Positions 11,947 through 35,530 of a DNA stretch of 38,367 nt are shown here, piece by piece (within the stretch, counting starts at the first letter, position 1; each line of letters starts with the position of its first letter). Below the pieces are notes generated by a model, which had not been told where the DNA came from, made no database searches, and worked only from the letters and a program-made list of their open reading frames with translations. The DNA lies in the NCBI GenBank assembly GCA_944381535.1, contig CALWLN010000153.1:1-38367 (forward strand), given 5' to 3'. Both the position numbers and the translations under genes were made by a program. This DNA comes from an uncultured Lachnospiraceae bacterium (GTDB taxonomy: Bacteria > Bacillota > Clostridia > Lachnospirales > Lachnospiraceae).

Positions 11947-12651
11947 TCACGGATTATCTGATGTGTCTGTCGAAGCATCGGGGATTGAGGCGCCCACCTG
12001 CTGCGCCTTTCTGACCCGTTTGGGTAGTTTCAAGGCTTGTATGCGGTCTATCAGAAAAGAGGAAATGGTGACCGTGATAAGGGAAAAGGCGATGCGGGAA
12101 AGGGGAATATAGGTCAGGGAGAGGCCCAGCACCACAAAATCCGTAAAAATGTAGGCTCGAGACAGCCGCCAGTGGGTCAGATGGGAGATGGTGAGGGCCA
12201 GGGCATCGTCCCCGCCGCTGGAGCCACCCTGCCGCACAATCATCCCGACGCCCACGCCCACAAAGATGCCGCCGGCCATAGCCGCTGCCAGCGGGTAAGA
12301 GGATAAATCCGGCAGCATGGGTGGGAAGCATTCCCACAGTTTATAAAACAAGGAAACACTCAAGGTTGACAGGATGGATATTTTAATAAATCTTCCGCCT
12401 AAATATTTAAAAGCCAGAAGGTAGCAGGAAATATCCAGCACCGTTGTAAGGATGGAGGGGGAAATGCCAAACCAATGCTCCACCAGAAGCATCAGACCGA
12501 TCACTCCGCCCTCCGTGATACCGGTCTGCTGGTGGATATTGTGAATCCCGAAAGAGCAAATGGCTGCGCCTGTTATGATAAAAGCAATTTTTTTCCAGGA
12601 CAATCCGCTGGCCAATTTGCGCGCAGAAGCGGAAAAATGATGTTTCAACAT
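11947..12651 (-). CDS. YitT-family membrane protein, short form
   Basis: A 234-residue integral membrane protein of the YitT/DUF161 family. Seen: about five hydrophobic helices, the GITEGGVIGLMLLVEHWFG region, LLAFKYLGG, and the glycine-rich VRQGGSSGGDDALAL motif that marks the family. Most YitT proteins (about 280-290 residues) end in a cytoplasmic DUF2179 domain. Here the protein stops after a basic helix and a polar tail, so that domain is missing. The ribosome site AAGGAGG lies 6 nt before the ATG. It is divergent from a MerR regulator across a region with four hairpin units and a MerR-type promoter, so it is probably that regulator's target. The transported substrate of the family is not established. 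Confidence 0.85.
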   Translation of the reverse strand: MLKHHFSASARKLASGLSWKKIAFIITGAAICSFGIHNIHQQTGITEGGVIGLMLLVEHWFGISPSILTTVLDISCYLLAFKYLGGRFIKISILSTLSVSLFYKLWECFPPMLPDLSSYPLAAAMAGGIFVGVGVGMIVRQGGSSGGDDALALTISHLTHWRLSRAYIFTDFVVLGLSLTYIPLSRIAFSLITVTISSFLIDRIQALKLPKRVRKAQQVGASIPDASTDTSDNP

Positions 12652-12662
12652 GGGAAACCTCC

Positions 12663-12691
12663 TTGTATTTCGTCTTTTTGGCGGGTATAAT
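12663..12691 (+). promoter_or_regulatory. Plus-strand promoter reading into the hairpin array and merR-type gene
   Basis: TTGTAT (12663-12668), a 17-nt spacer and TATAAT (12686-12691). The predicted +1 near 12698 coincides with the first base pairs of hairpin unit 1, so the mRNA of the downstream regulator would begin with the array. The -35 box lies inside the ribosome-site region of the divergent yitT-family gene. Confidence 0.65.
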
Positions 12692-12696
12692 ATTCG

Positions 12697-12835
12697 ATAA
12701 TAGGGTTCGCGAAGCGGTTCCTATTATATTTGATAATAGGGTTCGCGAAGCGGTTCCTATTATACATGATAATAGGGTTCGCGAAGCGGTTCCTATTATA
12801 TTTGATAATAGGGTTTGCGAAGTAATTCCTATCAT
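12697..12835 (+). repeat. Four tandem 36-bp units, each a 31-nt hairpin
   Basis: Hairpins lie at 12697-12727, 12733-12763, 12769-12799 and 12805-12835, an exact 36-bp period. Each reads ATAATAGG, GTT, CGC, loop GAA, GCG, GTT, CCTATTAT. The GTT/GTT step forms G.U, U.U, U.G in plus-strand RNA but only mismatches in minus-strand RNA, favouring the plus transcript. Unit 4 has diverged, yet its inner stem TGC/GTA still pairs (C-G to U-A, G-C to G.U), and GTT/ATT gains a U-A pair. Its outer stem has one mismatch. The units fill the leader between a promoter and the MerR-family gene. Confidence 0.9.
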
Positions 12836-12861
12836 AAAGGATATAGTAACTATAATGTCAA
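12831..12861 (-). promoter_or_regulatory. Probable MerR-type promoter and operator for the yitT-family gene
   Basis: On the minus strand TTGACA (12861-12856) and TATGAT (12836-12831) are separated by 19 nt, the over-long spacer typical of MerR-activated promoters. Inside the spacer lies the perfect dyad TATAGT-A-ACTATA (12842-12854). The adjacent divergent gene encodes a MerR-family regulator. The -10 box lies within the last hairpin unit. Confidence 0.6.
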
Positions 12862-12870
12862 GGGGGCAAT

Positions 12871-13701
12871 ATGGAAAATTTATTTTCGATTGGTGAACTG
12901 TCCAGGTATCAAAATATATCAAAACAGACACTGATTTTCTATGATAAAATCGGTCTGTTCCGGCCGGCCTACGTGGACCCGGATAACGGATACCGCTATT
13001 ACAGCGCCAGTCAGATTGACTATCTGGATACCATTCTGATCATGAAAAAAATCGGATTTTCTTTAAGTGAGATTCGAGAGCATATGCAAAATTATAATAT
13101 TGACAGCAGTCTGGTGGCGCTGCGAAAGCAGTTGACGGTCATTGACAGCCGGATTGAGGAACTGCGCCTGATCCGGAGCCGCTTGCAGCACCGCTGCGAG
13201 CAAATGGAAAAGGCAAAGATATACAGGGAAAAAGAGAATGGTGTCGTTATAGAAGAGATGAACGCCCGGTATATTCTGTTTCAAGAGGTGGAGAGACCGT
13301 ACAGTCTGCGGGAGATCAGTATTGCCACCAAGAAATGCTTTGCCGAAGCTTTTCAAAAGCAATTACCGATATTTTTCCAGAGCGGCGTGACGGTTCCCCT
13401 AAACCGTATCCGGGAGGAACGCTTTACGGAAGCTGCCCTGGCCTTTCTGCCAATCGAAAGGACGGACAGGGCTGGCAACATCCGGGAACTTCCCGCCGGA
13501 ACCTGCGCAAGTATTTACCACGTTGGAGATTATTTGTCTATCGGCAGTTCTTACCGGAAGATCCTTCATTATTGCGAAGCGCATTCCTGGCAGATCGTGT
13601 CGGATTCTTATGAGTTCTGTATCAACGACTATATTACGACCCATGACGAGGCGGAGTATATCACGAAGATCATGTTTTATGTGGAGAAGATGGAAGGGTA
13701 A
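12871..13701 (+). CDS. MerR-family regulator with GyrI-like effector domain
   Basis: A 276-residue BltR/Mta-like transcriptional regulator. Seen: a winged HTH (about 4-70) with FSIGELSRYQNISKQTLIFYDKIGLF and DNGYRYYSASQIDYLDTILIMKKIGFSL, both hallmarks of MerR proteins. A dimerisation coiled coil (about 78-118) is followed by a C-terminal GyrI-like ligand-binding domain (about 125-276). Such proteins activate promoters with 19-20-bp spacers by twisting the DNA, often in response to small hydrophobic compounds. The start has AAGGGGG 6 nt upstream. A TATAAT at 12851 is too close to the ATG to serve it. The array of four hairpins forms its probable leader. The likely target is the divergent yitT-family gene. 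Confidence 0.9.
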   Translation: MENLFSIGELSRYQNISKQTLIFYDKIGLFRPAYVDPDNGYRYYSASQIDYLDTILIMKKIGFSLSEIREHMQNYNIDSSLVALRKQLTVIDSRIEELRLIRSRLQHRCEQMEKAKIYREKENGVVIEEMNARYILFQEVERPYSLREISIATKKCFAEAFQKQLPIFFQSGVTVPLNRIREERFTEAALAFLPIERTDRAGNIRELPAGTCASIYHVGDYLSIGSSYRKILHYCEAHSWQIVSDSYEFCINDYITTHDEAEYITKIMFYVEKMEG

Positions 13702-35176: not shown

Positions 35177-35530
35177 ATGACAGACACAGAATTATTGCAG
35201 GCGTTGTACAATGACATGCAGTCCATGAAAGAGGACATGCAGTCCATGAAAGGCGACATGCAGTCCATGAAAGAGGACATGCAGTCCATGAAGGACGAAC
35301 TACGGCATGTCAAGGAAAGACTCACCAGTCTCGAATTGAAGCTTGAGAATGAGACGAATCGCAACATTCAGCTTCTTGCGGAGAATCATATGAGTTTAGT
35401 GGATAAGCTCAACAATGCCATCAGAGTGCAGGACAAATCCATCCTTTTCGAGGTGCAGGTATCCGGTTTAAAGTCTCGGATTGACATTATCGAGAGGGAG
35501 ATATCTGAGTTAAAGGCGAAAATTGCATAA
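35177..35530 (+). CDS. Coiled-coil protein with heptad DMQSMKE repeats
   Basis: A 117-residue cytoplasmic protein predicted to be almost entirely coiled coil. Four exact or near-exact seven-residue repeats DMQSMKE/G (about 13-40) are followed by ELRHVKERLTSLELKLENETNRNIQLLAENHMSLVDKL and a second helix SILFEVQVSGLKSRIDIIEREISELKAKI. Heptad spacing of Met and hydrophobic residues fits a trimeric or dimeric coil. No signal or membrane segment. The start is ATG 35177 after AAGGGG; a start 42 nt earlier has no ribosome site. The gene stands alone between a promoter and a strong terminator. The middle and end resemble the small coiled-coil proteins common in Lachnospiraceae, function unknown. Confidence 0.75.
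   Translation: MTDTELLQALYNDMQSMKEDMQSMKGDMQSMKEDMQSMKDELRHVKERLTSLELKLENETNRNIQLLAENHMSLVDKLNNAIRVQDKSILFEVQVSGLKSRIDIIEREISELKAKIA
35213..35296 (+). repeat. Four 21-bp tandem repeats inside the coiled-coil gene
   Basis: The unit begins GACATGCAGTCCATGAAAG; copies lie at 35213-35233, 35234-35254, 35255-35275 and 35276-35296 with only two or three base differences. Each encodes one coiled-coil heptad, so copy-number change would lengthen the rod without a frameshift. Confidence 0.92.

What the first reader, a model, noticed from the sequence alone, without database searches (positions are those of the whole stretch)
12697..12835. Four tandem hairpin units with compensatory changes in the leader of a MerR-family gene
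Directly seen: exact 36-bp periodicity, each unit a 31-nt stem-loop with GAA loop. Unit 4 differs at seven positions but keeps its stem through a C-G to U-A switch, a G-C to G.U change and a U.G to U-A change. Internal GTT/GTT steps are wobbles only in plus-strand RNA. A plus-strand promoter starts transcription right at unit 1. This points to selection for RNA structure: a multi-hairpin leader, protein-binding array or stability element for a drug-type regulator. No known riboswitch or repeat class was recognised.
Basis: partly seen in the sequence, partly recalled or inferred. Interest (0 to 1): 0.72.

Follow-up and report, generated by a model that had tools for sequence, protein, structure and literature searches.

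The report
Scattered hairpin repeat at promoter starts
The four hairpins ahead of this MerR gene are one local array of a short palindromic repeat that is scattered over the genome and usually sits, in sense orientation, just where transcription of an unrelated gene should begin, so it may be a mobile repeat that puts a hairpin on the start of many mRNAs.

Summary
In detail: four 31-nt stem-loops at exact 36-bp spacing lie at 12697-12835 (unit 4 differs at 5 of 31 positions, not 7, and loses an outer pair). The merR-specific reading fails. The unit is a dispersed family: 56 covariance-model matches in the own genome, 49 in a sister species, patchy elsewhere (8 of 299 family genomes sampled). 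Genes downstream are unrelated (GlnRS, Rho, Tex, SpoIIGA, glycerol-kinase-like and others). The new point is position: of 80 arrays in two species, 76 have a -10 box of at least 5/6 just upstream, 54 of them or their weaker kin ending exactly 5 nt before the stem, with a -35 peak only at spacer 17 and a same-strand gene next in 65. Other intergenic TATAATs show this far less. At GlnRS a sister species and two further congeners keep the promoter but lack the array, which points to a gain at an existing promoter. Stems covary; a GUU/GUU internal loop is nearly invariant. Best reading: a small mobile hairpin repeat that lands at transcription starts, duplicates in tandem, and gives mRNAs a 5'-terminal hairpin. 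The mover is unknown; no RAYT-type partner was found. Start sites and mRNA effects are inferred, not measured.

The parts
12663..12668 (+). -35-like hexamer TTGTAT (3 of 6)
   Evidence: sequence; same hexamer in the sister species' merR promoter; not listed by the promoter scan
12686..12691 (+). -10 box TATAAT, spacer 17; also the left end of the repeat array
   Evidence: kept in the sister species, which has no unit here
12697..12727 (+). hairpin unit 1; predicted transcription start falls on its first bases
   Evidence: start inferred from -10 distance
12733..12763 (+). hairpin unit 2, identical to unit 1
12769..12799 (+). hairpin unit 3, identical to unit 1
12805..12835 (+). hairpin unit 4, 5 of 31 positions changed, outer pair lost
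12836..12870 (+). rest of the merR leader with ribosome-binding-site-like AGGGGG at 12861-12866; its sequence resumes homology with the sister species at CATAAAGGATATAG
12871..13701 (+). merR-family regulator with GyrI-like domain (276 aa), the gene downstream of this array
   Evidence: Pfam MerR_1 and GyrI-like
11950..12651 (-). divergent yitT-family membrane protein gene; neighbour, not part of the repeat
   Evidence: Pfam YitT_membrane

Best explanation
The array is a local tandem amplification of a small dispersed palindromic repeat. Copies enter existing promoters directly 3' of the -10 box, in sense orientation, so that the first hairpin begins at about +1 of the transcript; the unit then multiplies in place by tandem duplication. 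The stem with its GUU/GUU internal loop is conserved between copies because the folded strand is probably what the copying or moving machinery, or an RNA-binding partner, recognises. Side effect on the host: the mRNA begins with one to four hairpins, which by established rules for Firmicutes would shield the 5' end from RppH and RNase J and stabilise the message. Shown: dispersal, register with the promoter, sense orientation, site differences between species, stem covariation, local homogenisation of arrays. Inferred: mobility, the start site, the recognition step and the effect on mRNA. Unknown: the enzyme.
For: 56 model matches at E<=0.05 in the own genome; 53 and 49 at E<=0.01 in own and sister genome. 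Of 80 arrays, 56 have a 6/6 and 20 a 5/6 -10 box in the last 27 nt, 54 ending exactly 5 nt before the stem; the same search 30 or 50 nt further up gives 0 and 1 of 80 with 6/6. Without any choice of offset, offset 5 alone gives 40 with 6/6 and 13 with 5/6 of 80. -35: mean 3.07/6 at spacer 17, 26 of 76 with at least 4/6; no other spacer from 6 to 39 exceeds a mean of 2.04 or 8 of 76. Control: 50 element-linked TATAATs against 136 other intergenic ones: -35 mean 3.14 against 1.93, same-strand gene start within 350 nt 82% against 45%. GlnRS: array in own genome, none in sister species and in two further congeners, with TTGACA-17-TATAAT kept in the three. Covariation on 83 distinct rows: 61 cells changed on both sides against 16.0 in shuffles, 10 of 13 pairs, 0 of 500 shuffles as high. 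Units within an array 92.8% identical, between arrays of one genome 82.3%; 0 of 2000 permutations as high.
Against: No transposition was seen and no moving enzyme found. No clear target duplication at the GlnRS site. 15 of 80 arrays have no same-strand gene next by my crude gene caller, and it calls an ORF over the array at 16 of 80, some surely spurious. The unit itself carries TATAAT (right arm plus spacer), so the -10 match alone is partly built in; only the -35, the gene orientation and the empty sites are independent. Six sites are shared by both species, so some copies are old. At those six sites 5 changed pairs keep and 5 break pairing, 1 is unpaired in both (my count by eye).
Confidence: 0.6

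Rival explanations
1. A selected RNA leader element: the hairpins are kept at each gene because they stabilise the mRNA or bind a protein, and spread is only how the cell recruits them. Not merR-specific.
For: Register at +1 and sense orientation; nearly invariant GUU/GUU loop (104, 109 and 108 of 114 rows at the three positions); compensatory changes.
Against: No shared function among the 49 of 65 downstream proteins scanned; orthologous genes do well without the unit (merR, GlnRS); pairing breaks about as often as it is kept at the six shared sites (by eye).
Confidence: 0.22
2. A DNA operator of one repressor at promoters, like CIRCE.
For: Palindrome overlapping the transcription start of many genes.
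Against: Arms change together in kind (third pair U-A 41, A-U 18, G-C 5 of 83 distinct rows; fifth pair U-A 62, C-G 14), which self-pairing explains and a fixed half-site does not; inner GTT/GTT is not palindromic in DNA; gene set without common theme.
Confidence: 0.07
3. A REP-type or IS200/IS605-derived repeat moved in trans by a Y1 transposase.
For: Single-hairpin and three-hairpin forms with a TAATA-like left flank; Y1 genes exist in the own genome (4 matches) and in 4 of 10 other genomes searched.
Against: No Y1_Tnp match in 6 of 10 genomes that carry the repeat, among them G003 and G216 (92% and 99% complete); no unit within the 13 of 14 fetched Y1 loci, the one exception lying ahead of another ORF; no GTAG or CGTC tag within 6 nt of the stem in 0 of 80 arrays.
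Confidence: 0.08
4. A type III antitoxin array (36-nt ToxI-like repeats).
For: 36-nt tandem RNA repeats with structure (resemblance recalled, not tested against a ToxI model).
Against: Dispersed before unrelated genes; no ToxN match in the own genome, but that control rang nowhere.
Confidence: 0.01

Closest known systems
REP elements and REPINs with RAYT transposases
   Same: Short single-hairpin repeat, many extragenic copies, stem with conserved mismatch, covarying subfamilies (REP features from passages of PMC3733652).
   Different: No GTAG/CGTC tag in 0 of 80, no RAYT partner found, fixed sense position at promoter starts; that paper's listed phyla for GTAG and CGTC repeats do not include Firmicutes, and the word is not found in its main text.
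Pneumococcal BOX, RUP and SPRITE repeats
   Same: Small interspersed repeats of a Firmicute that fold when transcribed; BOX has tandem inner modules that vary in number (passages of PMC3049150).
   Different: BOX has flanking boxA and boxC; here the array flanks are unique promoter DNA. That paper reports those repeats over-represented between convergent genes, here copies precede genes.
5'-terminal mRNA stabiliser hairpins
   Same: Works-like comparison: a hairpin at the 5' end protects mRNA in Bacilli; purified BsRppH needs at least two unpaired 5' bases (passages of PMC3997798).
   Different: Known cases are single native leaders; here one dispersed repeat supplies the hairpin to dozens of genes. 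Stabilisation was not measured.
CIRCE operator
   Same: Inverted repeat at transcription starts (recalled).
   Different: CIRCE arms are fixed (recalled); here arms covary and genes share no theme.

Membership tests
REP (GTAG or CGTC tagged) | Tetranucleotide GTAG or CGTC at one end of the hairpin | tested here: not met
   0 of 80 arrays within 6 nt on either side of the stems; definition from passages of PMC3733652
REP with RAYT | Associated Y1 transposase gene flanked by the repeat | tested here: not met
   Y1_Tnp absent in 6 of 10 repeat-bearing genomes; 1 of 14 fetched Y1 loci holds a unit, ahead of another ORF; draft genomes
BOX element | boxA and boxC modules around tandem boxB | tested here: not met
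   No common sequence beyond -10/-35 upstream in 76 aligned promoters; flanks listed
MITE | Terminal inverted repeats and target site duplication | tested here: inconclusive
   The unit is one hairpin; no clear duplication at the one well aligned empty site
Riboswitch or other Rfam family | Match to a curated covariance model | tested here: not met
   0 at gathering scores in the window; 0 at E<=0.5 in 7 loci
Type III antitoxin (ToxI) | toxN gene downstream | tested here: inconclusive
   0 ToxN matches in the own genome, control rang nowhere; genes downstream are other families
5'-terminal stabiliser hairpin | Hairpin within a few bases of the mapped 5' end | not testable with these tools
   -10 boxes predict it; no RNA data
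5'-terminal stabiliser hairpin | Longer mRNA half-life with the hairpin | not testable with these tools
   needs experiment

The most novel reading that the evidence does not exclude
A non-autonomous element that uses the transcription open complex as its target: the single-stranded non-template strand at the -10 box admits the hairpin, which explains register and orientation at once, and every insertion fits an mRNA with a ready-made 5'-terminal hairpin. It would be promoter-start-targeted mobile DNA in bacteria.
Probability: 0.25. Interest if true: 0.75.

Novelty: new variant of a known kind. Interest (0 to 1): 0.52.

Why it matters
Small palindromic repeats are common, but I know of none tied base-for-base to the -10 box of dozens of unrelated genes. 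If insertions choose open promoters, this links transposition targets to transcription initiation. If copies stabilise mRNAs, expression of many genes in these gut bacteria can be re-set by gain, loss or copy number of one 36-bp unit. My literature check was limited to ten searches of an open-access library; nothing in their listings described it, which is not proof of novelty.

Tried and rejected
Rejected: merR/yitT-specific leader (unit is dispersed). Known RNA family. RAYT partner. ToxIN (control uninformative). Carriage on phages or plasmids: an exact degenerate pattern gave 0 in viral contigs and blastn of the array no match in the plasmid set; both are narrow tests. The sister species' different merR leader insert is not a second dispersed family: 1 match in its genome, itself, and 0 in the own genome. 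I first thought that the 94-95-nt three-hairpin form of other genomes is not at promoters; of 16 left ends listed (3 of them mis-registered or tandem-internal by eye) 11 have a -10 of at least 5/6, with mean -35 2.9 at spacer 17, so that is open. At two other places where the sister species lacks the unit (MocR-like gene, DUF975 gene) its promoter is not alignable, so they say less than GlnRS and merR. My notebook says about 13 arrays end in a half unit; recounted it is 11 of 80, after leaving out L183 (nearly full unit) and the antisense echo in L018. The 80 arrays include that one antisense echo and three weak copies (score under 25), which were left out of alignment A2 (76 of 80 kept, plus 38 from other genomes).

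Full report
Observation. The window holds four 31-nt stem-loops at 36-bp spacing between a divergent yitT-family gene and a merR-family gene. Lag-36 identity is 98 of 108, against at most 44 in 500 shuffles. Units 1-3 are identical; unit 4 has 5 changes in 31, three of which keep pairing and one of which breaks the outer A-U.

It is a dispersed family. BLAST of the array finds 34 places in the own genome. A covariance model from 52 units finds 56 matches at E<=0.05 there. At E<=0.01 the genus gives 53 in the own genome, 49 in G005, 12 in G003, 2 in G002, 1 in G001 and 0 in G004. In a family sample 8 of 299 genomes match at E<=0.001 with stricter filters. E-values are rough because calibration was short. 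An exact pattern in named species genomes gave 33 stretches from 8 assemblies, 6 of them titled Lachnospiraceae. G005 is very probably MAG E08__bin320, as contig numbers and lengths agree. No plasmid match and no viral match was found with narrow queries.

Catalogue. With a weight matrix I listed 80 arrays in the fetched stretches, 44 in the own genome and 36 in G005, 123 units in all; 30 arrays have two to four units; 35 of 43 spacings are 36, four are 40, and 43, 41, 39 and 35 occur once each. One of the 80 is an antisense echo of a real array (L018), and three are weak.

Position. Searching the 27 nt before each first stem for the best -10 hexamer gives 56 of 80 with 6/6, 20 with 5/6 and 4 with 4/6; 54 end exactly 5 nt before the stem, 10 end 9 nt before it. 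The same search 30 and 50 nt further upstream gives 0 and 1 with 6/6. Because the unit's own right arm and spacer can spell TATAAT, this is partly built in. Independent evidence: the -35 match peaks at spacer 17 only (mean 3.07 of 6 over 76 promoters, 26 with at least 4/6, 10 with at least 5/6), and 38 of 80 have TGn before the -10. No other column upstream stands out. As control, 136 other intergenic TATAATs in the same stretches have mean -35 1.93 and a same-strand gene start within 350 nt in 45%, against 3.14 and 82% for 50 element-linked ones. By my crude gene caller the next gene is on the same strand in 65 of 80; in 15 it is not or there is none, and in 16 an ORF is called over the array.

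Genes. Of the 65 same-strand downstream proteins 49 were scanned against Pfam; 44 have a match at E<=1e-5, one of these below its curated cut-off. They include GlnRS, Rho, Tex, SpoIIGA, four response regulators, EF-G-like, thymidylate synthase, FGGY kinase, RtcB-like, RpiR-like, bile-salt-hydrolase-like and nicotinate phosphoribosyltransferase proteins. There is no common theme.

Gain and loss. At GlnRS the own genome has TTGACA-17-TATAAT followed by four units, then the leader; G005 has the same promoter and leader with no unit, and G003 and G001 also have promoter and no unit. Parsimony says gain at an existing promoter. At merR, G005 has the conserved promoter, no unit, and another, non-dispersed insert in the same place. 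At two further genes G005 lacks the unit but its promoter is not alignable. Six sites are shared, with changed copy number at some (a seventh listed pair matched on one displaced flank only and was dropped). Of 11 changed pairs at the shared first units 5 are kept, 5 broken in one species, 1 unpaired in both (counted by eye), so constraint at single sites looks weak.

Structure. On 114 rows (83 distinct) from at least 13 genomes or assemblies, 93.8% of cells pair, 10 of 13 pairs show changes on both sides and 61 cells do, against 4.3 and 16.0 in shuffles; no shuffle of 500 reaches any of the five measures, and sliding the partner gives at most 14 such cells. Related copies inflate such counts, and identical subfamilies are single events. 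The G.U, U.U, U.G steps in the stem are present in 104, 109 and 108 of 114 rows. Loops are GAA 68, GGA 18, AAA 16, GCA 8 of 114. Units within arrays are more alike (92.8%) than between arrays (82.3%; 0 of 2000 permutations), which points to local duplication. Eleven of 80 arrays end in a left half unit that stops in or just after the loop (recounted); I cannot explain this.

Long form. G003, G216, G214, G166 and some named assemblies carry a longer unit with two further hairpins before this one, tandem at 94-95 nt in several, with a left flank like TAATA. The 36-, 40- and 43-nt units look like shortened forms. Some long copies precede genes in sense, others face away; promoter association there is open.

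Mechanism. I favour a mobile or copying hairpin repeat that enters at the -10/+1 region, then duplicates. The 5'-terminal position means a start within the first stem bases for the offset-5 copies. Passages of a review (PMC3997798) state that 5' hairpins stabilise mRNA in B. subtilis and that BsRppH needs at least two unpaired 5' bases; so stabilisation is a fair prediction, not a result. No mover is known: Y1 transposases are absent from 6 of 10 repeat-bearing genomes searched, and no fetched Y1 locus is flanked by units.

Known families. Rfam gives nothing. REP tags are absent in 80 of 80. BOX, RUP and SPRITE are the nearest relatives in kind (passages of PMC3049150). CIRCE and ToxI comparisons are recalled. 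Papers other than these three were seen only as search listings.

Noticed in passing
L009:1476-1525; also L268, L272, L273: The GlnRS leader has, just after the promoter, a small hairpin with a T-run (terminator-like) in the own genome, G005, G003 and G001: a possible attenuator.
   Followed up: no
L018, L021, L026, L179, L187, L194, L197, L204, L205, L209, L217: Eleven of 80 arrays end in a left half unit broken off in or just after the loop.
   Followed up: partly
L280 (tex promoter of G005): Where the own genome has two weak units before tex, G005 has about four GC-rich tandem hairpin-like repeats right after TATAAT.
   Followed up: no
L027, L190, L201; L196, L217: Shared leader sequence AGTTTCTGCTTGGCGAGG after three arrays and a shared sequence upstream of the promoter at two others: further dispersed repeats.
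   Followed up: no
window 35213-35292: 21-bp tandem repeat, 3.8 copies, 93% matches.
   Followed up: no
window 12849-12877, minus strand: Promoter-like TTTCCA-17-TATAGT towards yitT would transcribe the array in antisense; one such hit is what shuffles give.
   Followed up: no
G003 contigs C18, C50, C63, C69, C71: Long-form arrays lie at contig ends, so true copy numbers are probably higher than the assembly shows.
   Followed up: no
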